A stretch of 64,000 nucleotides of DNA from NCBI RefSeq assembly GCF_032854445.1, contig NC_088301.1, positions 58,788,512-58,852,511 of the forward strand, in the 5' to 3' direction. The notes below the pieces were generated by a model. The model was given only the letters and a program-made list of their open reading frames with translations. It was not told where the DNA came from and did not search any database. Source of the stretch: Liolophura sinensis (Eukaryota > Mollusca > Polyplacophora > Chitonida > Chitonidae). Made by a program: the position numbers and the translations under genes. Shown one piece after another: positions 878 to 64,000 of the stretch (position 1 is the first letter of the stretch; each line of letters opens with the position of its first letter).

Positions 878-1298
878 CTGATATGGCCTGCATCCACCCG
901 CAGATCTGGAGGACTGTGGCCGTGTTCAGAATGAAGAAGAGAAGGAAACAGGCGATGCAGATGAGGAAAAGGAGAGCGGAGAAGCCGACGAAGAAGGCAG
1001 CTGCCTGGAAGGAACCGCTCAGGATCGTGCTAAAGTCCGTGAACTCGCCTTCACACTCGTACGTCGATGCCGGACCGTTCCTTATGCAATGGCTGAAGAG
1101 ACCGAAGTACCCTACCTGCGGACTCTCCTCGGTATCTCCAATCCATTGTGGCTGGATAAATGCCACGATATTCAATATTGCGAAGCAGATTGTAAAAATG
1201 CCCCAGATTACAGCTATAGCTCGTGAATTTCGTACGTAATTCAAGTATTGAATACGCATATAACCGTGGTGATGCGACGATCCTGATGTTTGATACAT
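878..1298 (-). CDS. LHFPL tetraspan family protein (LHFPL3/4-like), copy 1, first coding exon only
   Basis: Lipoma-HMGIC-fusion-partner-like tetraspan membrane protein. In vertebrates family members are accessory subunits of membrane complexes (LHFPL5 in hair-cell mechanotransduction, LHFPL4 with GABA-A receptors). The exon encodes 140 residues from ATG 1296-1298 and ends in phase 1 at a donor reading TCAG|GTAAAT on the minus strand. Visible are the family block 'YVRNSRAIAVIWGIFTICFA' (residues 21-40), TM1 about 27-48, 'QPQWIGD' directly after it, 'GYFGLF' at 63-68, two extracellular cysteines (71, 82), 'FTDFSTILSGSFQAA' and TM2 about 99-123. TM3 begins near 127. The YVRNSRAI and FTDFST motifs resemble vertebrate LHFPL3/LHFPL4 more than LHFPL1/2/6. 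The remaining exons lie beyond the left edge. A second, more divergent copy lies on the same strand at 10399-15544. Confidence 0.9.
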
Positions 1299-6187: not shown

Positions 6188-6189
<2 letters not shown>

Positions 6190-6226: not shown

Positions 6227-6228
<2 letters not shown>

Positions 6229-10398: not shown

Positions 10399-13300
10399 TT
10401 ACAACTGGAAGTTGTTTGCCGCTGACCGCTTGGACTTCTCAGACCTGTGAGAGTACTCGGAGTAGCGATCCACTTGGTCATTGTCCGGAACAGTGACCAT
10501 TGGTTGAATTGGCATGGATCGTCTGGACATGGTGTCACCAGCATAACCATTAAACTCAGCTAAAAAAGTAAAAAATAAAAGACTTGTCAGCACAATGTGA
10601 AAATGGACAGGAGTTATTACCATAAGACTTGATGCATCAAATAAATGTCCTTATTAAGAGAAGACTTCAGATTAAACTGAAAGAGACTTGTTTAACATGT
10701 AAGTTATATGACAGTGCAGCCAATAATAAAATAAAAATGTTACCCATCCTAATATGTATGTTATTAGCATTTTAAATTAATTTTTAACTTAAAAAAATTT
10801 GTTTATGAAAACTCACATTTGGAGACCATTCCATTGGTTAGGTGATATTCATCCATGAGCTTGGCTGTCTTGGTCGCCAGAACGAAGGCTAATGCAGCTA
10901 GGACAGCGGCATCAATAATTCCCAAAATGGCCAGGATGTATGCCCACCTGATCCCACATGCTCCAAGTTTGTACATTCCAACTTCCATGTCAGGGTCCTC
11001 CGAATGACGGCATAAGTCGACGACCCTTTGGTGATCCCAGCCAGATGGATAAATGACACAGCCAAGGAACATAAACACAGCTGTAACAAGATGATAAGAG
11101 GATTTAGTCTAATACAATGTATATGGACAACTGATACTGTGTTTACACTTGTTCTGCAATGGCAAGAGGAATATTTTATTACTTTTTAAAGAATTATAAG
11201 AGAAATGATCATGAAAAGTGCAAGTAGCATGAGTGTATCGGAATGTTGGACCACCTGAGAACACATAACGATGATGATACAGGACTAAGGGAAGAAGCTG
11301 AATGGGTAAGTTTTAGCTGCAACACATTCTGATTATTGTATAGCTACATAATGGAGAAAACATTTGCCAGCCAACAAAACAGAATAAACAGTCCAAACAA
11401 ACAATATGATATTTACATATATAAGACATGAACCTACAAGGCATGCAAATTCTACTGCCCTTCTAGTACTGGTACACGGATTTTCAGGTATTGATTTGTA
11501 TGCTGATTGAGGCTGTGATGTATCTATCTCAGTGCATATATCTGACAAGTTCATCTCTCCTTATGCATAAATTATAAATCCCTTTTCATAACACTATTTG
11601 CCTAAGTATCAATGCAAACAGATACCCATTGGGCTAAACTTGTGTCCATTGTAGCTTAAATGCTTGCAATCACTGGTTAACTTTTTCAAGAACATGCACA
11701 TTGTACTGGTACACAATTTGTTGCATGCAGTAGAACAATTAATGAACTAGTGGAAACCAAGAAAATACTGCGAGACTTCAGACACAAAGAGTAAAATTTT
11801 CACCAAAGGGCCTTAAGTCAAATAAAGATGTAACCTGTATTGTATATAGGGTCGGGTCTATAGAGCCTGTCTATTTCTGGCAACAACACCTGCTTTATAA
11901 ATATACCTATGTGTCAGTGCAAATTTCAAAGGCTACACAGATTTACCTGTACGACGAGTTTGCCAGACCTAACTTTTTAAATAACACAACATGTAAATAA
12001 GAGCCTGAATGTATGTCCCCCTACAGAGATATGCAAGGAATAATTCATCACGCATATTGTGTACCTAACATGGTAAGCATGCCAATACTTAATGTAACTG
12101 ACACAAGTACAATTTCACTTTGTACCCTTAAAAGGGAAAGAAAAAAAAATCCGTGTGAATGATGTTTCAAAATATATGAATGTTGTCAAAACAGGACCTG
12201 TTTAAACTTTCCTATTAAGTGTCCTAAGCTTTGTCTACTGTAATTTTAAATAGTACAGTAAACATTTGAGGAAGTTAAACATGTATAAGCCTAATACATT
12301 TAAAAACAATGTCTATCCATACCGGACTGCATGGAAAACTACAAATCACATAAAACTACATACTTGTGACTTCACCCTGCACAGTAGAATATTTCTATGC
12401 ACCATTTATATATACTGAATCGGATTGTGAGGGTTTTATCTCCTACATGTATTTTCTTTGTTAATTTGTATTTATGGTTTATCACTTAAGCTGTTCTGCA
12501 AAACTTTATTAACAATTTACAATAGAATTATTTGTTTGCTTTTATGATGCAATTAAAACATCATCATTGGGGCAAGGGTATAGTAATCTCGATCACCTGT
12601 CATCTCCCACTTGATCAAAGCTATCCTGGGCGTTTCTGTCCTTTGAACTAATGGGTCTTTTTATACATCAATGTTTAGCAATGAAATAAATTCCAGCTAC
12701 TTGCATAAAAGTGCTGAGTATACCACAAACTTTTACTTCCTTGTAATATATATTTTATGTTATAAGTCCGGTAATTCTGCAAGTGCTTGCTCATGCAATT
12801 ACCTCTCCTCCCCCTTCCCCCACCCCCACCCCCACCCCCATAGGAGAAACATGTTATCTATATGTTCATTGAGAATTCAGCCAAGTTTTTAAATCTTTAA
12901 AACCTCTGAAAAGTGATTTGTGTTGAAAGATAAATAGTCCAGGTAAAATGATGCCTTTGTAATTACTGAGGGCCAGGTTAAGTATGTGTCTAACACTCAA
13001 GGAGGCGTAGGCAAAGTGAATTCATTGGTAACAGAACAATAAAATAAAAGCCATATGGCCTGGGTCACTGATCTTAAGAACCTGTTGTCTGTCAAGCTGT
13101 TCGTGTTTAGATGTTTTTTATCAAACCTCTTCAAGTGACCACAGATGTCAGAATAAACATGTAAAATACAGTATGTCTGTGTGTACAGCTCATGGAATTC
13201 ATGGTCCAACAGTACTTAGGGGAACTGGAGGCCAAGTGAAAATTACAAGTGTTCATCTATCTCTCAACCACTCCTAACATTGTATCCATCACAAAATTAG

Positions 13301-15544
13301 TACAATCTGTTTCTCTAGCAAGAAATTAAAAGGGGAGGGATTGCAATTTTGCACTGGTTATCTATTATTAAAAGGGAATTAAAAGGGAAGGGATTGCAAT
13401 TTTGCACTGGTTATCTATTATTAAAAGGGATGGGATTGCAATTTTGCACTGGTTATGTATTATTAAAAAGGGAAGGGATTGCAATTTTGCACTGGTTATC
13501 TATTATAAAAAGGGAAGGGATTGCAATTTTGCACTGGTTATCTATTATTAAAAGGGAATTAAAAGGGAAGGGATTGCAATTTTGCACTGGTTATCTATTA
13601 TTACACAGCCTGGCAGAAAACAAGTAGGACACATCTTTCCAGAACACTCTTAGGGTTTGAAGCAACAATGAAAATAAGAACAGGGAACAGCTTCAGTCCT
13701 TAAACTGTATTTGGCAGTTGTAAAGACTAGGTTTGTCCTACGTTTTGTTGGTCAAGGAACCCAGGCTCAGATGTTCATTGTAAAAAGCTGCTTCTTCAAT
13801 GGACTGACATTACTTTCCATGGGATAGCCAGCTCAACTTTCAAATTCCTCTACTCTAAATCTAGTATAACCTAAATTCTGTTTAAACATAGTGTGATACA
13901 AGCATGTTTCACCATGATAATGGCTCTAGAATTTTGTTCCAAATGGGATTTTGATTACCCAGGAATTCTGAAAATATGAATGGCAAAACTTGTACATATG
14001 TTTTCACACATTCTAATGATGTGCTGCTGAAGATTAACTGCGGCAGTAAGTATACAAGATTCATTGAGAAAATAACTGCCTTGCTTACCTTATACCTTAT
14101 GCAGACATCATAAACTGTACTCTATTGCATTGTGTTGTATGTTTCACATATTCACACTAAAACAGTTATAGTTTGGGCTCCAGGAACTACCATTACAGTA
14201 TCTTGTCACACCAAGCACACACGGAGAGCTTGAAGAATAGAAGATAAAGCTGTTATGCAGGTATGTTTGAGCTTGAGTGCAAATTGACCAGAAAAATGAA
14301 GGTGTGCTTCTTAAATTTTAGAAAGGTACAAGAAGATTTAAAGTAAAATAGGAAATTGCATATGGTTTACAGTTGTTTTTTTTTGTGAGTGAGATGTATC
14401 TAGTGGCAGCCAGCATGAAAGTGATCAAACATCTACCTATTGTAAGAGCATGTGAATTCCTTAAATACATACTTTCTACTGCAAACTCAACCACATGGCA
14501 AAAGAAAGGAGGCTATACATGTGATATACCAGTATAAAGGAATATAAAAAAGGTGTATAAGCAACTCAGTAATGGTCACTTTCTAGAGGCATGCAGCCTT
14601 CCATTATGAACATGTGTATAGTCAATTCCCGCACAAATCCATGGTAAAAAGGTGTGACAGTTCTACAAACTGTTGATGTCACCTGTTGGGGGGATGGGTG
14701 GTGGTGGTGGTGGTGGCATATCACAATTAAAAACGGGAAAAGTGGAAAATATGGTGATCTGCATTGTATATCAATAAAACATCTGTAAACAAAACGAAGT
14801 ATATAATAAAATGTGAAAAAAAAAATTAAATAACAGAAACATTGAATAACTCTGTTGAACATTTCTCTGCTGTACAATTATGTCATCAACTGTTCTTGCA
14901 TTTTTTTGATGCGTATTTGTTTTACGAAAACATGTCCTACAGCTTGGGATTAAATGGGGAACGGTGCATTTTCCAAGAAAAAGCCAACTGGAAAACCACA
15001 AATCACATTTCTGATTATAAAGGAAATGTGTTGAATTTTTTGTTGACCTTTCAAGAAATTTCTTTAAACATGAATGTGAGGGATTTGTATATTGTATATG
15101 TACATTCTACTCACCACACACTACTTGGATTATTCCACAGAGGATAAACACCCAACGCCTCTTGAAGCAGAAGAACAGCATAATACCAGCGACACACAGC
15201 AACATCAGCAGGGCCGACATGCCCACGAAAAACGTCGCTGCCTTGAAAGAACCATTCAGGATCTCGGAGAACACGGCGAAATTTCCTTTACATATGTAGC
15301 GAAATTCTTCGTTGGGAAAGGTGTAAGTGGATGGTTCACAATGTCGATACAGTCCAAAATGTCCGTATCCCACTGTCGTGTGTGTATCCCCTATCCACTG
15401 GGGCTGGACAAAACATACTACGTTTAAAATGCAAAATATGATCGTCAAAACGCCCCAGAGAACACAAATTGCTCTGTATTCCCTGATGTACCTGGTCCGG
15501 TAATATTGAAGGGTCGCCGGCGTGTATTTCGGGTCGCTCATCAT
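10399..15544 (-). CDS. LHFPL tetraspan family protein (LHFPL3-like), copy 2, complete
   Basis: Minus-strand exons: 15544-15115 (ATG at 15544), 11080-10817, 10559-10399 (TAA). All junctions are GT-AG in phase 1, and the total is 855 nt, 284 aa. TM1 about 24-46 is followed by 'QPQWIGD'. The extracellular loop has cysteines at 69 and 85 and 'GYGHFGLYRHC'. 'ILNGSFKAATFFVG' leads into TM2 (about 103-126). TM3 (about 131-156) spans the first intron. 'YPSGWD' and 'YKLGACGIRWAYILAILGII' mark the second loop and TM4. The cytoplasmic tail (about 70 aa) is polar and rich in S/R/K, ending NNFQL, without an obvious PDZ ligand. It has 'YIREYRAICVLW' where copy 1 has 'YVRNSRAIAVIW', so it is the diverged paralogue. 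Membrane complex subunit by family. The partner cannot be told from sequence. Confidence 0.92.
11081..15114 (-). other. Intron 1 of LHFPL copy 2 (4.0 kb)
   Basis: No additional coding exon is supported. It contains a C-rich (CCCCCA)n stretch near 12812-12841, a minisatellite at 13335-13602 and a GGT-rich run at about 14697-14716. The 101-103 aa open frames near 14566-15147 have no family features and overlap on opposite strands. Confidence 0.6.
13335..13602. repeat. Minisatellite, six copies, two unit lengths (about 41 and 53 bp)
   Basis: Each copy carries 'gggattgcaattttgcactg' then 'gttatctattattaaaagg'. Spacings are about 53, 41, 41, 42 and 53 bases. The longer units hold an extra 'aattaaaaggga'. 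It creates the artificial 92-aa frame with repeated 'ILHWLSIIKRE'. Confidence 0.9.
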
Positions 15545-17424
15545 CTTGACGTCGTATAGTAATTCAACACCCTTTACGAAGAACTGAAGAGTATCTGACC
15601 AGAAATACGGACGGCAACACCTATGTACAACAGTTGTACCCCTTTCTGAAGCCTTCCAGTCAGCGCTGTGTTTCCTCTACGAACGATCCGAAAGTTCTTA
15701 TCAATCGTCTTAACTGAGACAGGTAAAATGGGTGAGGCTGGCTCTCAACAGGTAGACTAGCCTTCAGCGTAGTTATGGCTGTACTGCTATGTCGTTTTAT
15801 ATTTTTTCTCTGTCCACATAATCACGAACTCAAGCCTGATCACAACCCAGAATGAAAACTGGTAGAACAAGTTTCTATATTGGGCCCGCCTCCTGCATTG
15901 TTGAACTTGCCGCCAGCCATCATATCACGTGAAACAAGTCTTGGCGAGTGCTAAAAATAGCTGACAGCGATCGACAAGCCAACTGAATATTCACCGTGTC
16001 AAAGGTTCCCCGCTTTTCCCGCGTCATGCTGTTCTGTTACGAATGAGATAGACAACAACAACAAGTGAATGATCGCTGGAAACGAGTAGACTTTGGTAGG
16101 TTTCTGTAAATTACTGTCTATTTCGGACAGAAATCTGTGAACTAACATACTCAGATAATGAGACACTGAACAAATAAATGTGTGCAGTATGCATGAGTAC
16201 TTTTTTTGTAAGCTGGAAAGTTTAAACTTTCACATGTTTCATGGGACAGGAAAAGCATTATAAGGTGTCCAATTTCTGTGCATGTTGATTGCTCACGTGG
16301 ATAAGAAAAAGAGTTTTACATTATCAAAGACAACAAACAAACATTACTCCGCAGCTATCATGTATTAACACGTCTGATGTCCATTGAACCTATTGAAACA
16401 CCAGGGCCATCCTTACGGGACAGGGGATGTCAAAACAGTTGTATTACCGTACATAATACTTATTAGTGATTTGTTAGTATTGACTGCCCACCCTCATTTA
16501 TCCAGATGACAGTTCTTCGAGATCATTCAGACAAAATGTGGTATAAACAACAAAGCAGTAGCAGAATGTTGCAAACTTTGTGAAAAATAACAAAGTTGCT
16601 TTAATACAGTTATGGTCGTTTTTTTTTTTAATTTGAACTGTTTTCTAAAGATGTGTACCAGAAATACTGAAAATACACTTCTATTTTCAAACATGTTACT
16701 CAGATGTCAAACTAATCAAATTTTGGTGCAGTATATTTCCTGGTGTGTGTTCATTTGGTATTGATTCTGCGTGACACACATTAAATGGGTCCTGACACAC
16801 CCATTTGTATCTTAGTTTGTCACACATCAGAACTTTGCAACTGTGTACAACACAGCAGTGAACTGAAATATATACTAACATCTGGAAAGGTTTCATGATG
16901 ATGTACAAAATGTGCTTCACCATGGTGCCTGAAAAGCAGAACGTGAGATTCTGCTCTTTGTCTAAAATGACACTCAACATGTATTTCAAGAGATAAACCT
17001 CAGCGGTACCTAACATATTAAACCTTCTTCACTTAGTCCGCATTTGTGTAGATTAAAAGTTTATGCATCTATCACTAGTGGGATATTAGCATCATTTGTA
17101 ATATAGATTTACTTTCCAATTAAGCATAACTCATCTCATGGCAAATGTAATGGGCGCCTGTTAAATGCACATCAGACAGACCCTGATGCCATTTTATAAA
17201 CATCAAATGTGTGTTTCCCAGCTCCTCATGTTGACATCACAAGATAATACAGCATTATGGTGGAAACTGATATATTATAACATTGGACATGTTGCACAAC
17301 TGTTGATTTTTGACTTCACAACAGCATCAGTGTATAAGTGTGTACAGTAAGTTTACTTGTAAATATGTGGTGTACTATAAACTTCATTTGTTTGTGGTTG
17401 ATATGTTGTAGAGTAAAGTCAGCG
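15545..17424. other. Divergent intergenic spacer between LHFPL copy 2 and ORC5
   Basis: The two genes start back to back, 1.88 kb between start codons. No coding exon is supported (the 106-aa frame at 16696-17016 has no recognisable features). Both promoters should lie here. The ORC5 side has an AG acceptor just before the first coding exon ('tatgttgtag' ending at 17410), so part of the spacer may be a 5'-UTR intron of ORC5. Confidence 0.55.
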
Positions 17425-49200: not shown

Positions 49201-52200
49201 TTAATAAATTCATTTATCACCAGAAATATTTACAGTATTTTTATTTTCAAACAAATGTAAAAAAATTATCATTCTTCTGCAGTTATATAAAATTGTGCTC
49301 TGCCCGGTTTCCACCCACTATAATGCTGGCCGCCATTGTATAAGAGAAATATTCTTGAGTGTGGCATAAAACACCAATCAAATAAATAAATAAATTAAAT
49401 TAAATAAATTAGATGTCCATTACAAATGTAATGACATTACATGGGAAATGAATGCTGCCGTTCTCGGCAGGTTTGTGCACGTCAAACTTCCAGGAAAGGC
49501 TAAGACGGAGCAGACGCAGTTCCGCTGGTGGCAGCCTGCTCATTCTGGGCCAGGACATGACCAGTGGGCACTGGATGACATCCATGTCGGGAAGTATAGG
49601 CGCCTGGACCACCTGGAGGACAGCTTTGATGTAAGCCTTTAGCTGATCAGGTGTGACAGCAAACTCTCTCAGTCTCACTGGAGGATAACATTTTTGTTCT
49701 AAATAACGATGGTTTGTTGACCAGGGTGGTGATGATAAGCTTCACTGTTTGAGGCGTAAAACACAGAGGTTCAGCCTTGATCAGGTTTCTGAGGTCTGTC
49801 CTGGTCTTACAGCTTGTCTAACAAATAACGTCAGGGTTCCAACTGCCATTCGCCCTTGTCGCCAATTTTTTTTCACGGTCTGGGTTAAAGAATAGTTGTA
49901 TGATGTTCAGAAGGGTTTGTGAAAGCAAATGTGTTTAAATGTGACAGTGTAAAATACAGTACTGCTCGTACCTAGCTGGTAAAGTCAGTGGTTTGCTCCA
50001 GGGATTCTCTTCCAACCATAAACCTGACCCCTTTTGTGTTAGGGGATAAGTTGTGTTGGGGATAAGTTATGTAGGGGATATGTTATGTGGGGGATATGTT
50101 ATGTAGAGGATATGTTATCTTGGGAATATTTTATGTAGATGATATGTTATCTTGGGGATATGTTATCTTGGGGATATTTTATCTTGGGAATATGTTATCT
50201 TGGGAATATGTTATTTTGGGAAAATGTTATGTTGGGGAATTGGTTTTGTCCATACCATAGCATGTTTTCAAGTGTTCAGTGGTGACCTTATAATAAAGGT
50301 CTCATTTCACAGTCCAACACAAGATTTTTAAAATGTCAGGTTTAAGCTAGAATCAGGCTGTGATATATATTCATCTTCCTTCTGTTCTTGCAGCAAATGT
50401 CTTTGGATGTACGGCACTCTGACCTGTGGTTGACTATCACTGATGGTGTTCTGGCGAAATTCTGCCGTCAAAAGGACCTGGCCTTAGTTCTGGCCAATCA
50501 AAACAGTGACAAATCTGTGGTGACCAAGGACCTTTTGCTCAAGCCTGGCTATGTTATACAGTTCATGGTAAAATACTTTATACAATCACGCTAAACATGA
50601 GTGTTGCATACAGAAACTATAAGAACGTCTAAGATGTACTTAGCCTTATTTATGCCCACATACGGATCCCTATCCTAGTGGCTTCCAGTGTTTGTGCATG
50701 TATATTTGTGGTTAAGCTTACTGTAAGGACAATGTAAGTAATGAACCTCAGACATAAAATATACTTAGTCACCTGTTTCACTGTACATTTTTAGTGTAAT
50801 TGTTCCCCGATTCACATACCGAAGACAGTAACACTGATAGTTGCTGTTAGTTGTAAATACTTCTTCATTTCACATATTTATAGGCCTGAGGCACATTAAT
50901 GATTAGTAAACATTGAAAATAAATGATATTGTGTTCTTTTCAAGATCAATGTGGGCTGTGAGAAGAGATTTCGCTGGGATCATCCAGTCCTTCTCCAATA
51001 CTCATCTGACTTTGGGCGTACCTGGAAACTCGTCCAGGAGCCGTGTTACCAAGGAGACACCTGCGAGTCTAAACCTAAGCCGTCTGAAGGGAGCATATAT
51101 TATAGCGGTACTCATGGGGACTGGACCCTTGTGGTGATCCCAGTCTCGGAGGAAGTTGCCATGAGGTACTCTTCCATAACTATGCTCTCTGCTGGGCTGT
51201 GTTGTTGTCTGGGGTATGGTCCGTTCTTTGTTCTGACTGCCAGTGTTAGCCACAGGACAGGGTGAAACAGAAAAGTCCAATCAAATGGTGTGATCAAAGA
51301 CAAAGCAATACATGTCACAGACATCACTAATTCTGATATCAACTGACTCATTCTGATACAGTCTTATTTAACACCAACTGATCAAGTCCTTTCACATCTC
51401 TGTGATGATATTTGTCAGATTTTTTCATCTGTAAGATTCAGAGCAATGTTGAACAATCTTGTTTGTAAATGTTTTTCACAAATTTTTAAATGGGTAGTAT
51501 TTCTCTTCTCTGTTTGCTCTCTTTAGATAAACAGGTATTTTTCATTATTAGCATCAGGTGTCATGCAGCTATTTTCAGAACTGTTCTTTCATGCATAAAA
51601 TAAATAAATTAGTAAATGATAAAGTAACCACATACCTATTTTGTGACAGACCAGTGGTGCTGCGCTGGTTTCAGCCAGGGGGAATGATGTCCAGTTTTGC
51701 CCTGGATGACGTGTACATAGGCCCTCCGTGCCCCAAATACTGCAGTCGCCATGGAGTCTGCCAACAAGGAAATTGCTTGTGCGATGATGGCTACCTAGGT
51801 GAATACAATATGCATTTCTTTGTGATTTGTATCTATGAATTTGGAAGATTACAGAATGTGGACTAAGCCAGGATTGTCAAGCATGGCCATTATGAGGTGA
51901 TTTTTCACTTATCTATAAATCTTTTCTGTAAAAGTAATTGTACATGTATTGTGAGCTGTAGTCGTTCTTCACTTAAAGAAAAGAATTGTTTTTTGACACC
52001 CAGAATGATTTCTTTCTCTGTCCACAGAACCAGATTGTAGTCCACCTCAGCAGAATCCCAAGGGTATGGTTGACAGATTTGACAACACCAACATGCCTGG
52101 TGATAACTGGGCAAATGTGCTAGGAGGACATCTTGGGAAAGATTGCGGCTTCATTGACTATGGCAACAGTCTTTACTTCTCTGGGAAGGGAACCCGAGAA

Positions 52201-55200
52201 GCCATGACAGTTCCTCTTGATACATCGTCTTTGCGGTGAGTCAAACATCCATGTTTTGTCAAAACAGCTGACAATTTTTATTCATCTGAAGTTACAAAGC
52301 CACAGAGCTATTCTGTGAACATTTTCTGCACATTGTTGTTTGTATTTTGCAGGATGTTGCAGTTTGTCATTACAATAGGAAGTATTGAAGACAGGCCAGA
52401 TTGTCTGCGACCAAGTAGCCGTAGGGAAGGGGTTGTTTTGGATTACTCATTAGATAACGGTGTCACCTGGCACGTGTTGAAGGTCGTCGAACCTTTGTAC
52501 TACAACAAGACTGTTCAGGTTGTCTCCATTGATCTTCCTGCAGCAGCCAAGACAGATAAGACGATCTTCAGGTGGTGGCAGCCATTGGGGTTTGGAGGTA
52601 AACCAAGTTAACATTCATGCTTACTCATGAATATATAATGTACATAATGAATATGCTTACATGAACACATTATCTACATAATGAACATGCTTACATCAAC
52701 ACATTACTTACATAATGAACATGCTTACATGAACACATTATCTACATAATGAACAGTCTTACATGAACACATTATTTCCATAATGAACATGTTTACATGG
52801 ACATTATTTGCATAATGAACATGCTTACATGAACACATTATCTACATAATGAACATTCTTACATGAACACATCTACATAATGAACATGCTTACATGGACA
52901 CATTATCTACATAATGAACATGCTTACATGGACACATTATCTACATAATGAACATCCTTACATGGACACATCTACATAATGAACATTCTTACATGAACAC
53001 ATTATCTACATAATGAACATGCTTACATGGACACATTATCTACATAATGAACATTCTTACATGGACACATTTTCTGCATAATGAACATGCTTGCATGGAC
53101 ACATAACATATGTATGGTAGGTGATGGTTGGTAGTGTAACATTAGTATACATGTACTTTTTAGTGACAATGTATCGAATGACATGATATATTTATTTATT
53201 TGGTGTAATATATTTATTTAACATACTCATGAATTGACATCCAGTTCTTGGTATATGTAATGTTTTGTTGAATGTGATTGTGTTTATGCTTTCCTTTCTG
53301 TGTGTCACAATTTAGTGATCACTTATTGTGTATACAAACAGTTACCAAATTCAAGGACTTGCACTTGAGGACTTTATTTGTACAGAGATTTGCATGGAAA
53401 TGAAGTGGAAAATAACTTGAGGAATGGGATTATTAGAAAGTTCTTAGAACTGCATGTGCATCATGGAAATGGAGAATATATTCAGTTACATATGGAGTTT
53501 GTGACAAAAATATTTACATACTTACAGTTGTAAATAATCTTGATCTGAAACAGTGTGTGTATTACTCCACAGAAGTACCTCGAGCGCAGTGGGCCCTGGA
53601 TAGTGTGATGATTGGCGTGAATGACTCCAGCGCCAATGGTTTCCAAGATGACTTCAGTGACATGATGCCAAACCCATCTCATTGGTTCATGTTTGCAGAC
53701 GGTATCCCAAAGATAGGTTGCAACTCAAAGGGGAATGCATTTGAGTTCAGTCGCAGTGATGGTGAGCTGTACAGCAATTCAAATTTGTTTTACAAAGTGT
53801 TACTTTTCAATCATAGAAAATTGTTTTTGTCCTTAATTTTTTCCACATTTCCTTTACTTGCAGCTGGGACACGTTTTGCGGAGACATGGGATTATCACGT
53901 GACACCATCCACATTTCTCCAGTTTGACATAGCTATGGGCTGCGGTGGTGCATACAGTCAGGTATACACTGTGATGCTCCAGTACTCTGTAAACATGGGA
54001 AAGACCTGGCACCCGCTCATTGAGGAATGCATGCCGCCTCATTTTGAGTGTCCAGGGTACCACCTAAGCAGTGAATATATGTCTGACCAGTACATGAACT
54101 GGACCCGTGTGACGATCTATCTGCCTCCAGGAGCAATGTAAGTGTGTCTTTAAAGTCATCAGGTAAACACATTGTAATACAGTGTATATTGTTACTCTTA
54201 ATCAGCTTGATGACAAATGTGTGCTTATTTGTGTGAACATTTTGTGTAGTTATTATTAAGGACCTGGAAATGTGCACCTCGTGGTGTTCATATTGCTGAT
54301 TATTTGTCTGAATATTTTGTGTAGTTATTGTTAAGGACCTGGAAATATGCACCTCATGGTGTTCATATTGCTGATTATTTGTGTGAACATTTTGTATAGT
54401 TATTGTTAAGGACCTGGAAATATGCACCTCATGGTGTTCATATTGCTGATTATTTGTCTGAATATTTTGTGTAGTTATTGTTAAGGACCTGGAAATATGC
54501 ACCTCATGGTGTTCATATTGCTGATTATTTGTCTGAACATTTTGTGTAGTTATTGTTAAGGACCTGGAAATATGCACCTCATGGTGTTCATATTGCTGAT
54601 TATTTGTCTGAACATTTTATATAGTTATTGTTAAGGACCTGGAAATATGCACCTCATGGTGTTCATATTGCTGATTATTTGTCTGAACATTTTGTATAGT
54701 TATTGTTAAGGACCTGGAAATATGCACCTCATGGTGTTCATATTGCTGATTATTTGTCTGAACATTTTGTGTAGTTATTGTTAAGGACCTGGAAATGTGC
54801 ACCTCATGGTGTTCATATTGCTGATTATTTGTCTGAACATTTTGTGTAGTTATTGTTAAGGACCTGGAAATATGCACCTCATGGTGTTCATATTGCTGAT
54901 TATTTGTCTGAACATTTTGTGTAGTTATTGTTAAGGACCTGGAAATGTGCACCTCATGGTGTTCATATTGCTGATTATTTGTCTGAACATTTTGTGTAGT
55001 TATTGTTAAGGACCTGGAAATGTGCACCTCATGGTGTTCATATTGCTGATTATTTGTCTGAACATTTTGTATAGTTATTGTTAAGGACCTGGAAATGTGC
55101 ACCTCATGGTGTTCATATTGCTGATTACTGTTCATCTTAGACGTATAATCAGATAGGTTTATTCAGCAAGTTGAGAACACATTCACAAAAGGATTTGTCA

Positions 55201-58200
55201 GTAATAATGCTGCCTGTCTTGGAGATTCAGAGTGAACTGGTTTTTCAAGATGAAAAATTTGCTTTAGAACATACCCTGTTTTATGGTAGTATGTGTAACA
55301 ATTTGATTTCATTTTGAGTAAAATGAAGCAGGTGCAATGATGTTTGTTTTCTCTGTCAGTTCTCCTGCCACAAGGTTCCGCTGGCTGCAACCACCGGGTT
55401 CTCCACGAGGAAACGTGTGGGCCCTGGATAATGTCTACCTGGGTGGGGGCTGCCCTTGGCTGTGCTCGGGCCATGGCTACTGTAATGCCGGGAAATGTGT
55501 GTACGTATGGTAGAAACTTATGGACATGACTTGGGAATGTTATGCTAATTCATTTGTGACCGTGCAATGAAATAGTTTTAGAAATATTCCATCCAGGAAA
55601 AAGGTTTTGTTAGGTTAAGAAAAATAAACAAAGAAAAACCAGATGCTTTTAAAATATAGATTTCAACTTAGGTTTCATTTGAACAAAATCTTTCAGACTC
55701 GGAGGGACCTTTTTTGGCTTATTCGGCTAAGCTCCACTGCAGCCGATCATCCTTTGGCCATTGGGGTTGAGTATTTAAATCCTGTTCCACCATATCAGTA
55801 GTAGCCTTATGTCTGGACGTTTGTTGGGTACCCAGTGAAGGGCAATGATTTTTTGTGAACCCAAATTTCTTCACCCATAACCTGGCTGCCAAAATAAATG
55901 AGTGCATCACTAATTTGTAGACATGGATGAGAATGTGTACACAGTGTACATTAACTAATCTGCCAACCTCGAAATATGTGAAAGTGAAATGTGCTGACTG
56001 AGTATGTCTTATGTGAAGAACAATAGGTTAATCTCTTATGATAATATATTTCAACTGTGCAGGACACTAAACAATTGAGATACTTTCCAATATATGTGTG
56101 GGAATCATACTTTGATTTAGTTTTGAGTTAGTGACAGTGAGTTTTATTTCCTGTGTTGTAGATGTGACAAAGGGTTTGGTGGTCCCCACTGTGTACCAAG
56201 TGTTCAGCTGCCAATGATGATGAGGGATGACTTTAACAAGCCTGTGGACAGAAGCTGGTGGCCAGAAGTGTACGGGGGTGAGGTGTCAAGGGTGTGTGGT
56301 ACTGTGGTCAGTGACACAGCTCTTGCCTTCTACAAGGTAAGATACATGTAGTCTATAGAAACAAAGGTCTGAAGTCAATTAAACTTACAGTTTACTGGAG
56401 TTCTTAGTATTATGTAGAAATTTGTCATGGGTAGAAATACTGTTTTAATTGTGTATTAAGTGGTCACGATACTTTTTGTATTTATAGGAATGTTTAATAT
56501 TGTAGAACTTTTAAAAAAATTTTGACACTTGCTGACACCAGCGAGAACCTTGGTCTTCTTGCCCCAATATGTAGTTGAACTATATATTTCTTGTGATATT
56601 GAATTTAGTGAACTTTGTTAGGGATCCACACTAGTATGATAGCGGGACACCTCTGGAAATTGTTTGGATTGCTATTATTATTCTTGGTCAAGTAGTAAAA
56701 TTGTAATATCTCCAAAACTGGTAAAGGTAGAAAAATCAAAGTTTGAGGTCTGAATAAGGAATGTGTGACGCAACTTTTGACGTTTTGTGCTGTTTTACCA
56801 GTCACATGATTTAGCGGCCAGGGGCCCCCGTGGCTCAGTTGGTTAGCGTGCTAGCACAGTGTAATGACACAGGAGTCTCTCACCAATGCGGTCGCTGTGA
56901 GTGTAAGTCCAGCTCATGCTGGCTTCCTCTCTGGCCGTACGTGGGAAGGTTTGCCAGCAACCTGCGGATGGTCGTGGGTTTCCCATGGACTCTGCCCGTT
57001 TTCCACCCACCATAATGCTGGCTGCCGTCTTATAAGTGAAATATTCTTCAGTACGTCGTAAAACAACAATCAAGTAAATAAATAAATAAATTTAGTGGAC
57101 ATGTTGAATTTTATTGATCAGCTAAAAAAATGTTTGTCTCCAAAACCGCTAAACCTATTGAGATAAACTTTTCGTTTACAGTTTTTAGGTAGATCGATCC
57201 ATTCATATGGTAAAAACTAGTTTGGTATGCAAATAAGGGCAAAACTGACCAATAAACTTGGCTCAAAAGTGGGTCAGTTTTTAAAACTGCTTAAAATCAT
57301 TCAACAAACTCACTCTCTGGTGCCATTTAATGTCACGATTGTTTTTGTACTTTTTGTTGTTTTCATGTTATGATCAAAATACCAACAAAACTTTAACAAA
57401 ATCATCCTGTGTAAATAACACAGGAGCTTCGTGCTAGACTGCATGAAACCATTGACTGCAGTTTATGGTGTCAGTGGACATCAGCTTTGCAAGAATGTAT
57501 TCTTTCTGACTTTTGTCCTGGGCTACCAGCAGATAGCCTCCTAGTCTCTACACTAGTCTTCAGTAGGCGAATTGTAAATAATGCTTGGCAGCATAGGGTT
57601 CAAATCCAGTACATGTCCCTTCTCCACTTAATTTTTTTTCTTCTTTTTCTGTGCTTTTTTTCTACTATTCAGCATACAATTTATTTAGAGTGTACAGAGC
57701 CGATCCCTGGAATCGTTGTTCTCAAGCTCCAGTGGACATTGTATGTAGCTGCGTGAGGTTCAGATGCAGTTATTAGCTCCTGCCAATCTTTCTTCTGTTT
57801 TTTTTTTTTTTTTTTTTTTCGGAAAACTAATGTACACTAGATCTGCGGTTTAAACCCAGAATATTCCTTACATTTTTTTACATACAATATTTATCTAATT
57901 ATTATTATTCTTAGTCAACTGGTAAATATCTCGAAAGCTGGTTAAGGTAGAGTCCTATGAGGAACATATGAAGCAACTTTTGTTGTTTTGTGCTGTGTTA
58001 CTAGTCACATGATTTAGCTGCCATTTTGAATTTTATTGATTAGCTAAAAAAATCTTCTTGTCCGAAACGGCTAAACGTGTCGAGACAAACCATTGACGTC
58101 AAGATTACAAATCAGCAAGAATTATTTTTGTACTTTGTGTTTTTTTCATTTTTTGACAAATAAACCAACAAAAATTTGACAAAAACATCCTATGTAAATA

Positions 58201-61200
58201 ACAAGGGAGCTTTGTGCTAGACTGCATTAACTGCAATTTACGATGGGAATGGTCATCAGCTCTTTGACAGTGTATTCTTTCTGTCTTTTGTCCTCGGGTA
58301 CCGGCAGAAGATCAAAGCCACCTAATCTCTGTTCTAGTCTCAGCACTTTGCCCATTGTTAATGGTACTTGGCAGTGCAGGGTTCCAATCCAGTACATTTC
58401 TTTACGTTGTTTTCGGGTTTTTTTTACCATGATCATGAACTGTATAGACATCAGGCTACCAGAAGTGGTAAAAGTCTTGTTGGATCAACCCTGGCAATGC
58501 TGTTGGATAACAGATTTAATTTTCATTTAAAGGTAATGTTTGCTTGTTTCTTGTTTTTGAAGGAATCAAGGCGAATGGCAATCACACGTGATTTTGACAC
58601 GTCAATGGTAGAGAATGTGGAGTTCTTCCTTCAGTTTGGGTGCACAGAGAAGGAATCTGATTGGCCTAGGTCACACAGCGTGTTATTACAGTACTCGACC
58701 AATGGCGGAATAAAATGGCAATTGTTGCAAGAGCTACATTACCGAAATGAAACCAAGCCGAGGTGCCTTAATCACTATCCACTTTTTTAAATCATATCTT
58801 TGTGAGATTTCCAGCTTGTCTGTTAAGGAGATGCTCATTAAACTTTTTAGCTAATTTTTTTTTTTTTTTTCATTCTTTTTCATGGTTACCCCCCATTTAG
58901 GACTTTGCGTAACAGTGCTTTTCCATGTATTCAGATTTTGTTCATGCATCTCCTCTTAAACTATGGCACCGATTTTGATGAAACTTACCATACATCTTGC
59001 CTGTCGTCTGATCTTTTTGGAAATGTTGGGGGATGAAAGGGTGGTATTTCAGACATCCAAATTCTAGTTATGTAATATTAGATTTAGTGAAATTTTGAAG
59101 GTTTTTCATAATCTGTGGTAGTGTGGGTGGGACTATTGTGTTCAGTCACTGTGCAGTCACCATTAAAAGGGTTCCATGTAGAACCACAGAACATTGAATA
59201 TCAAACATGTTGGCTCCCGGCCTGAAATAAGATTCACCTTGCAATGCAGCCATAAAGTTTGAACGAACAGGTGCATAGTTATACTTACACTTTAAAGAGG
59301 GCTATTCTCAACAGCAAGATATTGAAAATATTAAGTAAATAATGTTATGTTATGCCTTATTTATTATTTAAATAATTTGTATAGTTATCACATAGGAAGT
59401 GTTATCATTGTCATTTTGATTGTTAAGAAGTCATGTGGTTTAAATGATTTTCATAACACAATGTATTCATAATGGAATTAGGTGCCAGTCTTAAGGTTCT
59501 TGTATTTTTTATAGGTTTTATAGTTTAACGTTGCCAACAAACGCAAAAGCCAATGCCACAAGGTTTAGATTCCTTCAACCAAAGCATGGAGGTAAGCCAC
59601 AGTTTTGCTGTTGTTGTTGAATGTTTCAGTAACTATTTTCAGCTTTGTTTAACATGTTTACTGGAATTTTTCAAACATACTGAGAATATAGGATAATGCT
59701 AGCCTAAATGCTGCACCTTTTGTATAGATTGACCTGTAGTGATGTAGTGGTTTGCTTTTCCAGGTCACCTAGTGTCTGCGTGGGCTATAGATAACTGGTA
59801 TGTAGGAACAATGATCATGAAACCTAACACAATCTATGACACTTTTGATGACCTGCAACCAAGTGAAGAATTCTGGCTTTTTGCTAACAATGGAAAATTG
59901 GGACGATATTGTGGACTGAACACAAGGTAATGTTTCATTTAACCATAATACATTTACTGTAAAATTGGGAAAATTTCCTGTCTAAACTGATTGCTTCTGA
60001 ACTCTGTAAAAAAACACATCATTCATCAGTTCTGGTGATCTGAAAGAATATTCATCACTTTGCTGTATGAACATATTCACAGAGAAACAGTGAAAGATTG
60101 AATGTGGATCTTGCTTGGACGAACTAGTTTTAGGCAGACAATGTTCACAGTTTGCTCTGAAACAGACTTTGATGAAACATTTTGGATCCTTGCTGTAGTG
60201 GCTAAGTTAGCTTGGACAGACTAGTTTTAGGCAGACAGTGGTCACAATTTTTGATGAAATCTTTTGGATCCTTGCTGTACTGGCTAAGTTAGCTTAGACA
60301 AACTGGCTTTAGGCAGACAATGTTCACAATTTGCTCTAAAACAGACTTTGTTGAAACTTTTGGATCCTTGCTTCACTGGCTAGGACAAGCTGGTTTGAGG
60401 CAGGCAATGGTTACAATTTACTCTGAAATAGACTTTGATGAAACCTTTTGGATCCTTGCTGTACTGACTAAGTTAGCTAAGACAAGCTGGTTTTAGGCAG
60501 GCGATGTTCATAATTTACTCTGAAATAGACTTCGATGAAACCTTTTGGATCCTTGCTGTACTGGCTAAGTTAGCTTGGACAAACTGATCTTAGGCAGGTA
60601 ATGTTCACAATTTTTCCACCACAAGCAACTAACATATTTTTTGAATTGTGATGTTGCATGGTTACGTGTATAAGCACATGTAATAAAGGGTAACTTATCG
60701 CCTCCAAGCACTAACATGCACTTTACAACTATTATCACTGTGATATGGATATAGTATTTCCACAGTGGTGTAAATGTCATAATCATTCATTCATTTAATG
60801 AATGAATGACTCCTGCTGAAAATAAAACTGGTCCTTTGTGAATTGATTCTTTACTGTAGACGAGACACAACAATGGCGGGCCAGACTGCTATGGTGTTCA
60901 GACATGGGGATGGGGAGAAGTCCTTGGTCTCTCGGGATATGGAGGTTGGACCAGCTAGTGTCCTACAGTTTGATGTAAGAAAATTATAAAATTATACAGC
61001 TCATCACAAGTTTGTTTCAGGGAATTACTGTATATTCTTGGATATCAGTGATATTTAAAACATCCCCTCACATTAAAACTTGGACCAATGTTAGCTGTTG
61101 TGTTCAGATACAAGGATTTTTGTCAATCATAGCTTACTTATATGAGGAAGTGAGACAGCCAGCATAAACAGTGTCTGCTTTCCCCCTACAGATCAATGTG

Positions 61201-64000
61201 GGTTGTGACTCAGTTGCTGACAATGCCTTACCTGTGCGCCTGGAGCACTCCTCGGACAGAGGGAAATCTTGGCACCTGCTGAGTGAGAACTGCCTCAGAT
61301 ACTCCATCTCCCTTTGCCAGGATAAGGTGAAGCACCCGAGCCTCTACTACAGTGGAACCTCTCGTTACTGGAGGAGGGTCACCATCCCACTGAACAGCCT
61401 CCATACCTGTGGGTCAGTCTTTCCTCCATCTTATACACTTACTTTAATTTCTGAATCTATCTTTTTTTTTTTATCATTACTGCAGTTTGTTAATTCCAAC
61501 TATGACATCACAGCCAAGACTTTGAACTACAAAGGTTATAATTCCTGAAATAGACCTTCTAAGAAATTTATCAAATCAAGTTGTGATACAAACTTATCCA
61601 GGTATGGAATTGCATGTAGATTTATCTCTTATGTAGGTAACAACTTGATGACTGTCATACTATAACACAGGTACAATGTACTGTAAATCACTAATAACTT
61701 TATGGAATGTTTTTTTACAAACTAATCACCCTGCTGTACTAACCTGGTGAGAAATCATGTCAAAAATTATCTTATTATCAGTAAACCAAATGTAACTTCA
61801 CATGATGTTTCACCTACTAATCACCCTTTTGTAGCTCAGTTTGTACAGCACGATAAAGCATTCCATGAAATAATGGGTAAATCACTGTTTGTGTAAAAAT
61901 ACAGTGGTACTGCATTTGTTTTGGTTTTAATGTTTTTAAAGATCGGTGCGTTTCCGTTGGCGACAAGAGGCTGCACCTGAGCATGGGTATGCCCCCGAGT
62001 GGGCTGTGGATAACGTATACCTGGGAATGATGTGTGCAGAGCACTGTCATGGCCAGGGAAGCTGTATCCATGGGATGCTGTGTCAGTGTGACCACTTCTA
62101 CTCTGGAGACACCTGCATACCTACCACCCCCAACCCTAGCTACCTGAAGGACTCATTTGATGCGCTCTCCCTAGGAAGGTCTGCCAGGAACCGTAGTGAC
62201 ATTAATGTTATCTCTAATCTGCCTATAACTTCACGTAAGTCCCTGTCATGTTTGGAGAGACAAAGTGGCCCTGAACATGTGATTAACAGTCTTGATGTAT
62301 CCTCATTAATATTTTTAAAGTTCATTTCACAGCTCATGGCTACTCAGTTATTAAGAAGTTTGCACTGTGTTGGTCACACATGTAAGGTTATTGTTCTCTC
62401 TCAGGCTCGGTCAGGCGATGTTTCCCCATTCTGATCATCCATTGTGCATCAGACATTTCTGGCAATAAGCAGTCCACAGTGCTCATTGGTTCGTTTAACA
62501 CCAGTCAAAGTAATCAAATCAAAACACTGTTTAACTGTTCAAGAATTCTGATAGAAACCCCTTTTATAGGAACTGTTGATGAAGGTAAATGGCTGACATG
62601 GAGTGGTGGTGAGATAGCAAAGACCTGTGGCATCCTCCTTACTGGCAGTAACCTCTACTACAGTAACAGAGGAGACAGATTGCTGACAACAGTCGACCTT
62701 GACCTGTCAAAAGGGAGGTAAAGAACCATTCTCTCGTGTATTCTACATGTTACGCACAGGCAAGACAGAAGTGATATATGAAATTTGAGTGAGTTTGTTT
62801 TATGCATGTAGAAGTAGATATTTGCGATTTATCCTGTTCTGACCCACCCTTGTGCTATTTTGTTGATGCCATTGCAAACAGATGTAAGTTGTCAAGAAAT
62901 TTGTAAGAACATTCTGGTATTTTTTCATTGTTAGATAAGTTTTGTGATTGCCAGTGTGCACAAAACAAAAGTAAAAAAATAAAGATACACGCCTTACATC
63001 TGCATAACTACATGTACAAGGTGTATAGGATTCATGTAGGCCCACATCTCTGTTGTCATGTTGTCACAATTCCGTCTGTGCACTTGTCTGCTTGTGACAG
63101 TTGTAAATAATGCACAGTATCATTGTTGATATTTAAAGACATCTTTACAAAAAGATCAGTTGTAATCTGTAGTTGAGTTGTGTACACGTGCATGTGGATG
63201 GTTATGCCTGAGACATTCTGTATGACCTTCTGCTCAGTTTGATCCAGTTCTACCTGAAACTGGGATGTAAGGACACTGTGGACCCCAATACAGCGCCCAT
63301 CCTGCTGCAGTACTCAACCAATGGAGGCATACACTGGGTCATCATTGAGCAATTTGACTTCCATGCCTCCAGTAACCAACCCAACTACATCGTCGTACAC
63401 ATCCCACATGGTGCCCTGACAAAAAGTACTCGGATCCGTTGGTGGCAACCAAGCTTGGACGGTACTTTTCTTGAAGACTGGGCAATAGACCAGGTAATAG
63501 TTGTTCTCTTTCAAATTGAAGACAAAACAAGACAAAAACAAACAGTTGAAAAAACAAGAAGACTATCTATCCTGTACAAAAATCACTCTGTATTGAGTCA
63601 TATCAGCCGGATTAGCTGCTACTGTGAATTATTTAAGTTGTTGTTGCAATGTATTAAATACATTTGTCAAGGAAATTGTCTGCTTTTAAATATGGACATG
63701 AGTTGATGGTTGTACATGGTTTAAAATTATTGACATAGTTTCTTTGTTATCAAAAACAGTATCATGGCTGAGGTAGATGTTATTTTACTTGAAAAGTGCC
63801 TGAAATTGTATATGTTCTTCACCTGATTCTCCTTAAACCACTGAGAACTCTCAGATGGCTTATATCTAAGTGCTTTTATCTCACTTGAACCAAAATGATT
63901 TGTCATGTGGGTGATTGTTTTGGCCAGGTGTACATAGGAAGTGAGAGGGAGAGCCAGGCACTCTTACAGGATGAACCGGACACCCCTAAGGACTCCAATT
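34685..64000 (+). CDS. RELN: Reelin, 5' part (41 exons, about 2,334 codons); continues past the window
   Basis: Secreted matrix glycoprotein; in vertebrates it signals through ApoER2/VLDLR and Dab1. Exons: 34685-34895, 35424-35661, 37164-37234, 37571-37676, 38099-38195, 39232-39283, 39551-39651, 39871-40105, 40374-40531, 41563-41714, 42102-42211, 42833-43047, 43470-43598, 43994-44103, 44518-44584, 44997-45230, 45713-45874, 46329-46568, 47077-47376, 47667-47804, 48086-48272, 48516-48724, 49471-49630, 50394-50567, 50945-51165, 51650-51798, 52028-52235, 52353-52597, 53573-53761, 53864-54137, 55360-55500, 56162-56336, 58563-58762, 59515-59591, 59764-59926, 60860-60974, 61192-61412, 61942-62234, 62570-62717, 63238-63493, 63928-64000. 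All are GT-AG, and phases agree at every junction except across exon 7, which carries an apparent +1 shift near 39590. Ten Asp-box (BNR) motifs and five EGF modules collinear with human reelin make the call secure. Repeats 6-8 and the C-terminus lie beyond 64000. Confidence 0.97.
38745..39180. repeat. 52-bp minisatellite, about 8 copies (reelin intron 5)
   Basis: The unit is 'ctgtagctctgtgatgtagt', 'ccacctgaagtaggacaaat', 'gtagtgggtgtg'. The right-hand copies are more diverged. It makes minus-strand frames of 60-171 aa with a '[14 protein letters not shown]' periodicity, which are not genes. Confidence 0.93.
40620..41505. repeat. About 20-bp minisatellite (reelin intron 9)
   Basis: Variants of 'cacagtcattacatatacaa', interspersed with 'tctatacaat' spacers, fill most of the intron before exon 10. 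The 187-aa plus-strand frame and the 104-aa minus-strand frame are products of this repeat. Confidence 0.93.
43188..43276 (-). repeat. SINE 3' fragment, minus strand (reelin intron 12)
   Basis: 'ttgattggtgttttatgccg' and 'tacacaagaatatttccttg', then 'cagcattatggtgggaggaa', are the reverse complement of the SINE tail and late body. Confidence 0.75.
46094..46265 (+). repeat. SINE copy lacking its 3' tail (reelin intron 17)
   Basis: 'ggggcctctgtggacaatgg' head, 'ggagcctctcacccgtacag', 'agttcaagtcaagctcatgc' and 'cagatggttgtgggtt' match the SINE up to mid-body, after which the similarity stops. Confidence 0.7.
46725..46985. repeat. About 43-bp minisatellite, about 6 copies (reelin intron 18)
   Basis: The unit is 'acatgtgtctctctcaagtc', 'attaaattaaataacagctt', 'aaa', with copy-to-copy substitutions. 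Confidence 0.85.
48755..49085 (-). repeat. SINE-like element, second family, minus strand (reelin intron 22)
   Basis: The reverse complement ends 'ccacccatgaatctgaccat', 'cacagtataggtgaaaaaaa', 'ttcttgggcatggcactgaa', followed by 'catcaatcagttaattaa'. This is a SINE-type tail distinct from the main family. The head is not clear. Confidence 0.4.
49095..49195 (+). repeat. SINE-like tail, second family, plus strand (reelin intron 22)
   Basis: 'cccccataaacctcactgtc', 'atgatagaagggatatattc' and 'ttcagtacgatgaaataaat' resemble the tail of the neighbouring minus-strand element, so the two point away from each other. Confidence 0.4.
49284..49400 (+). repeat. SINE 3' fragment, plus strand (reelin intron 22)
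   Basis: 'ctgcccggtttccacccact', 'ataatgctggccgccattgt' and 'attcttgagtgtggcataaa' plus an aaataaata tail are the main-family SINE without its head and central body. Confidence 0.8.
50032..50240. repeat. About 16-bp minisatellite (reelin intron 23)
   Basis: Repeated 'ggggatatgttatctt' with variants ('gggaatatgttatgta', 'ggggataagttatgta'), about twelve units. Confidence 0.85.
52610..53107. repeat. About 34-bp minisatellite, about 14 copies (reelin intron 28)
   Basis: The unit is 'cttacatgaacacattatct' then 'acataatgaacatg', with atgaacac/atggacac variants and a few shortened copies. Confidence 0.93.
54219..55133. repeat. 75-bp minisatellite, about 12 copies (reelin intron 30)
   Basis: The unit is 'ttatttgtctgaacattttg', 'tgtagttattgttaaggacc', 'tggaaatatgcacctcatgg', 'tgttcatattgctga'. 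Copies are nearly identical, and the main variation is tatgcacc/tgtgcacc. Since 75 is divisible by 3, long minus-strand frames (172 and 186 aa) with a 25-residue period arise by arithmetic. Confidence 0.96.
55700..55905 (+). repeat. Possible tRNA-derived element (reelin intron 31)
   Basis: 'ttggcttattcggctaagct' resembles an A box and 'ggggttgagtatttaaatcc' a B box about 50 bases later. No tail or target-site duplication was recognised and there is only one copy in the window. Confidence 0.25.
56673..57616. repeat. Tandem segmental duplication, copy 1 (reelin intron 32)
   Basis: Shares with 57899-58400 in order: 'attattattcttggtcaagt', 'agtcacatgatttagcggcc', 'tgaattttattgatcagcta', 'gagcttcgtgctagactgca' and 'ttcaaatccagtacat'. 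It is interrupted by a SINE and has about 150 bases (around 57180-57330) that are missing from copy 2. Confidence 0.85.
56821..57090 (+). repeat. Full-length SINE with target-site duplication (reelin intron 32)
   Basis: 'gggcccccgtggctcagttg' head, 'tgtaagtccagctcatgctg', 'gcggatggtcgtgggtttcc' and tail 'attcttcagtacgtcgtaaa' plus aaataaata. Flanked by tttagcggcca (56810-56820) and tttagtggaca (57091-57101). The second copy of the duplicated segment shows the unoccupied site 'tttagctgccatt' at 58013. Confidence 0.9.
57899..58400. repeat. Tandem segmental duplication, copy 2 (reelin intron 32)
   Basis: Diverged second copy of 56673-57616 without the SINE. It begins 'attattattcttagtcaact' and ends 'ttccaatccagtacat'. 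A long T run lies between the copies near 57800. Confidence 0.85.
59840..63493 (+). other. RELN: Reelin repeat 5 with EGF-5 (exons 35-40)
   Basis: '[20 protein letters not shown]' (exon 35), '[20 protein letters not shown]' (exon 36), '[11 protein letters not shown]' with Asp box '[12 protein letters not shown]' and '[17 protein letters not shown]' (exon 37). Exon 37 ends 'LHTCG', matching human 'LHLCG'. EGF-5 lies entirely within exon 38 ([11 protein letters not shown] ... [12 protein letters not shown]). Sub-repeat B: '[20 protein letters not shown]' (exon 39), Asp box '[12 protein letters not shown]' and '[11 protein letters not shown]' (exon 40). About 25 residues after 'LKDSFD' in exon 38 have no human counterpart. 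Exon 41 ([10 protein letters not shown]...) begins the link to repeat 6. Confidence 0.92.
60085..60605. repeat. About 97-bp minisatellite, 5-6 copies (reelin intron 35)
   Basis: Units contain 'aggcagacaatgttcacaat', 'ttgctctgaaacagactttg', 'atgaaaccttttggatcctt' and 'gctgtactggctaagttagc'. 'ggatcc' recurs at spacings of about 81, 97, 88 and 97. Confidence 0.9.

What the first reader, a model, noticed from the sequence alone, without database searches (positions are those of the whole stretch)
878..64000. LHFPL3-ORC5-RELN microsynteny conserved in order and orientation with human 7q22
Seen here: LHFPL (minus), ORC5 (plus), reelin (plus), with no other gene between them. Known: human 7q22 has RELN (minus), ORC5 (minus), LHFPL3 (plus), which is the mirror image. 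Three adjacent genes with matching relative orientation in an invertebrate and in human imply linkage inherited from an early bilaterian ancestor. The proteins have unrelated functions, so shared regulatory DNA (for example reelin or LHFPL enhancers inside neighbours) is a possible reason.
Basis: partly seen in the sequence, partly recalled or inferred. Interest (0 to 1): 0.75.

Follow-up and report, generated by a model that had tools for sequence, protein, structure and literature searches.

The report
Ancient LHFPL–ORC5–reelin gene trio
In this mollusc chromosome the LHFPL, ORC5 and reelin genes stand side by side in the same order as on human chromosome 7, most likely because both inherited the arrangement from a common ancestor; why it was never broken up is not shown.

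Summary
The window carries two tandem LHFPL genes (minus), ORC5 (plus) and reelin (plus); no further gene was found in the stretches scanned between them. ORC5 and reelin were each found at one locus only. The genome is molluscan. Human order is from a published table, the ORC5-reelin direction from another paper; the LHFPL3 strand is recalled. The identified genes next to the trio (PoxNeuro-like, PARP; queuosine salvage, receptor) differ from those of human 7q22. Wider linkage is old too: of six markers for 7q22-31 tried, five were found and four lie in the last 13 Mb of this chromosome, one of them weakly. Descent from the bilaterian ancestor is the best reading by far. The proposed cause, shared regulatory DNA, stays untested: no other animal genome could be searched. 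It is a further member of a known kind, ancient bilaterian microsynteny.

The parts
878..1298 (-). LHFPL-a, coding exon 1 (exon 2 lies outside the window, open frame C7:58786426-58786758)
   Evidence: Pfam L_HMGIC_fpl 110.8 bits; ATG and donor located; tree
10803..11080 (-). LHFPL-b, exon 2 to stop
   Evidence: Pfam L_HMGIC_fpl 77 bits; acceptor and stop
15115..15541 (-). LHFPL-b, coding exon 1
   Evidence: Pfam 79.3 bits; LHFPL4 of the PDB E 1.2e-23; tree
15542..17424 (.). 1.88-kb interval between the start codons of LHFPL-b and ORC5 (head to head)
   Evidence: start codons located
17425..26594 (+). ORC5, 14 coding exons placed by eye
   Evidence: ORC5 of PDB 5ujm E 1e-133; exon pieces; only ORC5_C locus found in G000, 2 of 2 matches
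23050..24871 (.). 73-bp minisatellite, 25 copies, in an ORC5 intron
   Evidence: TRF
27207..31706 (.). 59-bp minisatellite, about 77 copies, in the ORC5-reelin spacer
   Evidence: TRF
34685..64000 (+). reelin, 5' part; continues at least to C7:58863765
   Evidence: Reelin_subrepeat-B, 20 of 20 genome matches in this gene; PDB reelin E 4.8e-42; N-terminal exons by a recalled human sequence

Best explanation
The row LHFPL(-) - ORC5(+) - RELN(+) is an inherited piece of gene order from the common ancestor of molluscs and vertebrates, sitting inside a larger inherited linkage group (human 7q22-31 and the end of this mollusc's C7). LHFPL stands here as a tandem pair; the LHFPL-to-reelin interval is about 18 times longer in human. 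Shown: gene identities, order and orientation in the mollusc; one ORC5 and one reelin locus found; LHFPL group membership; shared linkage of several other markers. From papers: human order and the ORC5-reelin direction. Recalled: the LHFPL3 strand. Inferred: descent from the bilaterian ancestor. As to why it stayed whole, my first guess is regulatory entanglement: control DNA of the tissue-specific genes (reelin, LHFPL) reaches across or into ORC5, a ubiquitously needed bystander, so breaks are selected against. I put this at about 45%, nearly level with plain slow rearrangement.
For: Gene models and identities. LHFPL tree, support 100/100 with and 100/99 without recalled rows. Mollusc. Human coordinates (RELN 103.11-103.63, ORC5 103.77-103.85, LHFPL3 103.97-104.55 Mb). 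ORC5 3' end faces the RELN 5' end across 137 kb, both transcribed in one direction. ORC5 next to LHFPL3, ORC5 ubiquitous and LHFPL3 brain-specific. Wider linkage: TruD (PUS7), SCA7 (ATXN7L1), COG5 (weak) and Bap31 (BCAP29) on C7 at 47.5-56.8 Mb, the trio at 58.8 Mb; 4 of 5 found markers on a contig with 9.9% of the genome, P about 4e-4, or 3 of 4 without the weak one, P about 4e-3. Published base rates of such blocks.
Against: Only two species are compared, one of them from papers. RINT1, also of the 7q22 region, is on C1. DNAJC2 (RAC_head) gave no match. The COG5 match is under its family cut-off. TruD, SCA7 and Bap31 each stand for more than one human paralogue. The markers were picked by me and length-proportional placement is a rough null. 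For the regulatory cause there is no direct evidence at all; the compactness of the interval and its minisatellites leave little room, though 11.5 kb is ample for enhancers.
Confidence: 0.88

Rival explanations
1. Neutral retention. The trio is inherited, but no selection holds it together; it is simply one of the neighbourhoods not yet broken on a slowly rearranging linkage group.
For: The surrounding chromosome keeps several 7q22-31 markers, so exchange between chromosomes has been slow; hundreds of such blocks are inferred for the bilaterian ancestor; the three proteins have no joint function known to me; no regulatory element was found.
Against: The four linked markers lie 2 to 11 Mb away and the neighbours identified on both sides differ from the human ones, so order within the chromosome is well shuffled while these three stayed together in exact order.
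Confidence: 0.42
2. Regulatory entanglement (genomic regulatory block): enhancers of reelin and/or LHFPL lie in ORC5 introns or spacers, ORC5 being the bystander.
For: A ubiquitous gene beside a brain-specific one (human data); order kept while flanks differ. Rests on the general model, not on data from this locus.
Against: ORC5 introns here are short (12 of 13 under 1.5 kb; the longest, 2.3 kb, is mostly minisatellite); no match between the two LHFPL 5' flanks.
Confidence: 0.45
3. A divergent promoter region shared by LHFPL and ORC5 holds that pair, with reelin merely carried along.
For: In the mollusc the start codons are head to head 1.88 kb apart.
Against: In human the two gene ends are about 121 kb apart, which speaks against a compact shared promoter there; it would not explain reelin.
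Confidence: 0.08
4. Coincidence or independent assembly of the same order in the two lineages.
For: None found.
Against: Chance of 3e-10 to 2e-9 genome-wide, 3e-8 to 2e-7 within a chromosome under random order; shared wider linkage.
Confidence: 0.01

Closest known systems
Bilaterian-ancestor microsyntenic blocks (PMC8851819, passages seen)
   Different: Those blocks need not be collinear; this one is collinear. Whether it is in their tables could not be checked (supplements not open); the main text does not name LHFPL, ORC5 or reelin
Genomic regulatory blocks with bystander genes (search listing; passages of PMC8851819)
   Same: A ubiquitous gene (ORC5) between others, kept in order
   Different: No conserved non-coding elements or contact data here; the putative targets are a secreted protein and a membrane protein, not transcription factors
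PDI-RhoGDI microsynteny (PMC5722932, passages seen)
   Same: An old animal gene pairing whose upkeep is discussed as co-regulation or neutral retention
   Different: There physical interaction of the products is reported; none is known to me for LHFPL, ORC5 and reelin

Membership tests
Ancient bilaterian microsyntenic block | At least three orthologous genes, at most five intervening genes, in both species | tested here: met
   Mollusc side; human side from paper passages
Ancient bilaterian microsyntenic block | Present in several protostomes and several deuterostomes | not testable with these tools
   No other animal genomes held; no paper on the trio in an invertebrate in the listings, most of which show only part of the hits
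Ancient bilaterian microsyntenic block | Orthology of each member | tested here: met
   LHFPL tree; ORC5 E 1e-133; reelin E 4.8e-42 and one locus
Genomic regulatory block | Array of highly conserved non-coding elements across the block | not testable with these tools
   No related genome to align; inside the window the only non-coding matches look like dispersed repeats
Genomic regulatory block | Bystander expressed independently of the target | tested here: inconclusive
   Human only, from a paper passage: ORC5 ubiquitous, LHFPL3 brain-specific
LHFPL3/4/5 subfamily | Clusters with LHFPL3/4/5 rather than LHFPL2/6 | tested here: met
   100/100 support; 7 of the 14 genome matches are first exons and all 7 were used; LHFPL1 was not included
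PoxNeuro (neighbouring gene) | Place in the paired-domain tree; tribasic first helix | tested here: met
   Groups with a recalled Drosophila Poxn, 98/94; RRR in the frame, signal named
PoxNeuro (neighbouring gene) | KPKQVAT exon junction and [VI]PGLSYP[KR][IL]V motif of molluscs | tested here: inconclusive
   Simplest splice gives KPKVAT without the Q; VPGLSYPALV fits 9 of 10 positions

The most novel reading that the evidence does not exclude
The trio is the remnant of a regulatory unit over 500 million years old for neural and sensory genes: in the ancestor it also held PoxN, a neural transcription factor that stands beside LHFPL here and (recalled) has no vertebrate counterpart, and enhancers inside and around ORC5 still bind LHFPL and reelin together in both lineages after PoxN was lost in the vertebrate line.
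Probability: 0.1. Interest if true: 0.68.

Novelty: new member of a known kind. Interest (0 to 1): 0.4.

Why it matters
Reelin steers neuron positioning in vertebrates and its control region is of clinical interest. If its place next to ORC5 and LHFPL has been kept since the bilaterian ancestor by shared control DNA, ORC5 introns and the LHFPL3-ORC5-RELN spacers become places to look for reelin enhancers, and a mollusc with a 19-kb version of a 339-kb human interval becomes a compact test system. As plain inherited order it is one more example of a well-studied kind.

Tried and rejected
Longer human-like block: not supported; the genes identified on both outer sides differ. That view rests on reading open frames by eye over 50 kb on each side; only selected frames were family-scanned. 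Duplicate regulatory elements beside the two LHFPL copies: no match between their 5' flanks; other matches look like a dispersed repeat. Structured RNA: no Rfam match in the window at the gathering threshold. Hits to DNAG_N, Phage_tube_C, DUF4406 and NSF_ATPase_lid in the ORC5-reelin spacer: no stretch passes alone, all placed in the 59-bp minisatellite, taken as artefacts. Reeler domain by Pfam: no match at the first reelin exons; a PDB search of the first exon gave only chance hits. RAC_head for DNAJC2: nothing rang in any genome, uninformative. Paper searches for the trio in invertebrates: nothing in the listings seen (25 of 26, 1 of 1, 15 of 18, 12 of 300, 15 of 39 and 12 of 22 papers listed); a cephalopod and a sea anemone synteny paper do not name the genes in their main text. 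Irimia et al. 2012 was seen only in a reference list. A source for the LHFPL3 strand was sought and not found. My first ORC5 model of 13 exons missed one (mended); the peptide searched lacked it.

Full report
What is there. The window lies on C7 (58788512-58852511, 60.36-Mb contig) of a 609-Mb genome. The genome is a mollusc's: the haemocyanin beta-sandwich family PF14830 (that it is molluscan is recalled) matches eight times in tandem on C8. On the minus strand stand two LHFPL genes in tandem. LHFPL-a has exon 1 at 878-1298 and exon 2 outside the window; LHFPL-b has exon 1 at 15115-15541 and exon 2 at 10803-11080. ORC5 follows on the plus strand, 17425-26594, in 14 exons placed by eye (13, one more). 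Its joined peptide, without the late-found exon, matches ORC5 of PDB 5ujm over nearly the whole length at E=1e-133. Both matches of the ORC5_C family in the genome are exons of this gene. Reelin begins at 34685 on the plus strand and runs at least to C7:58863765. All 20 matches of the reelin subrepeat family fall in this one gene, and one exon matches PDB reelin at E=4.8e-42. The N-terminal exons (34685-34894, 35417-35662, about 37150-37254) were recognised with a human sequence recalled from memory: the first two align to it, the third was recognised by eye in the frame list of the same call. Pfam's Reeler model does not detect them.

Nothing else found between. Family scans of 1300-10800 and 26595-34684 (both strands), the plus strand of 15700-25692 and 34685-39500, and the minus strand of 16650-26590 showed no further gene. 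Not scanned: 11110-15100, the minus strand of 15677-16650 and of the reelin gene.

LHFPL identity. Of 14 genome matches to the LHFPL family, seven are first exons. All seven went into a tree with LHFPL4 and LHFPL5 copied from PDB alignments and with recalled LHFPL2, 3 and 6. The two C7 genes fall with LHFPL3/4/5 (100/100; 100/99 without the recalled rows). The C12 gene falls with LHFPL6, the C2 gene with LHFPL2, and three C10 genes form their own group. LHFPL-a is 59% identical to LHFPL4 over this exon; LHFPL-b is more diverged (41%). The tree does not resolve when a and b split.

Comparison with human. A coordinate table gives RELN, ORC5 and LHFPL3 in that order (PMC3377676, passages). Another paper says that the 3' end of ORC5 and the 5' end of RELN bound a 137-kb intergenic region and that both genes are transcribed in one direction (PMC3155544, passage), as here. 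A third places ORC5 and LHFPL3 side by side (PMC10244266, passages). That LHFPL3 is on the plus strand, so that LHFPL and ORC5 are head to head in both, is recalled. The LHFPL-to-reelin interval is 19.1 kb here (start codon to start codon) and about 339 kb in human.

How far the conservation reaches. On the LHFPL side the next genes recognised are a PoxNeuro-like paired-domain gene and a PARP. On the reelin side they are a queuosine-salvage gene, class C receptor-like ligand-binding frames (one of two family-tested) and a BTB-BACK gene. The human neighbours (SLC26A5, PSMC2, KMT2E, SRPK2) were not noticed within 50 kb on either side; this is a reading of open frames by eye, not a full scan. On the scale of the chromosome linkage is kept. 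I tried six single-family markers for human 7q22-31. TruD (PUS7) lies at 47.48, SCA7 (ATXN7L1) at 53.04, COG5 at 55.18 (below its family cut-off) and Bap31 (BCAP29) at 56.78 Mb of C7; RINT1 is on C1; RAC_head (DNAJC2) gave nothing. Four of five found markers on a contig with 9.9% of the genome has a chance of about 4e-4, three of four without COG5 about 4e-3 (rough null, markers chosen by me). That ATXN7L1, PUS7, RINT1 and DNAJC2 lie in one mammalian segment with the trio is seen in the gene list for dog chr18 (PMC9897549, passages); COG5 and RINT1 are in the human linked region; BCAP29 is recalled.

Interpretation. Random order cannot reasonably give the trio. Descent from the common ancestor of molluscs and vertebrates is therefore the best account. 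Blocks of this kind are known: 256 new ones are inferred for the bilaterian ancestor, stated to be 43% of the blocks there, against 45 to 56 in shuffled genomes (PMC8851819, passages). Between pairs of species only tens survive (45 amphioxus-chicken, 82 Pecten-Streblospio; PMC10719294, passages). So it is a real but not singular case.

Why it was kept. Two accounts are nearly level. Regulatory entanglement fits a ubiquitous gene beside a brain-specific one (human expression) and the contrast between the kept trio and the different flanks. Neutral retention fits the slow exchange between chromosomes and the absence of any element seen. In the window the interval holds 1.3 kb of coding DNA, 6.3 kb of minisatellite and 11.5 kb of other DNA; the two LHFPL 5' flanks gave no match. 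None of this decides the matter, because no related genome could be aligned.

PoxN. The gene beside LHFPL-a groups with a recalled Drosophila Poxn (98/94) and has a tribasic first helix. Against a clean fit, the simplest splice gives KPKVAT, not the KPKQVAT reported for PoxNeuro, and the motif after the domain fits the published molluscan one in 9 of 10 positions (PMC5333810, passages). That paper reports PoxNeuro in protostomes, hemichordates and echinoderms. If PoxN proves to be a neighbour elsewhere, the ancestral block had four genes; this is the boldest reading left open.

Novelty. No paper in the listings I saw names the trio in an invertebrate (searches, most listed in part), but genome-wide tables probably contain it and could not be opened. 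I file it as a new member of a known kind.

Noticed in passing
G000 C7:58776295-58777501 (L004:7784-8990): PoxNeuro-like paired-domain gene (+) next to LHFPL-a, tail to tail; a possible fourth member of the block.
   Followed up: partly
window 864-1319, 10803-11108, 15107-15676: Tandem LHFPL3/4/5 pair in this mollusc; copy b is more diverged (41% against 59% identity to LHFPL4).
   Followed up: partly
window 23050-24871 and 27207-31706: Large minisatellites (73-bp x 25 inside an ORC5 intron; 59-bp x 77 after ORC5) in an otherwise compact block.
   Followed up: no
window 54225-55127: 75-bp minisatellite, 12 copies at 97% match, between reelin exons; long open frames run through it on the minus strand.
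   Followed up: no
L001:9085-9942 and L002:2912-3655 (-): Two related coiled-coil open frames, by eye like CCDC51 (recalled); no Pfam match, only weak unspecific NCBIfam matches for the second.
   Followed up: partly
G000 C10:26189779-26307483: Cluster with 6 of the 14 LHFPL matches; its three first exons form a group apart from LHFPL2, LHFPL3/4/5 and LHFPL6.
   Followed up: no
G000 C8:37880506-37891931: Haemocyanin locus with eight tandem beta-sandwich matches.
   Followed up: no
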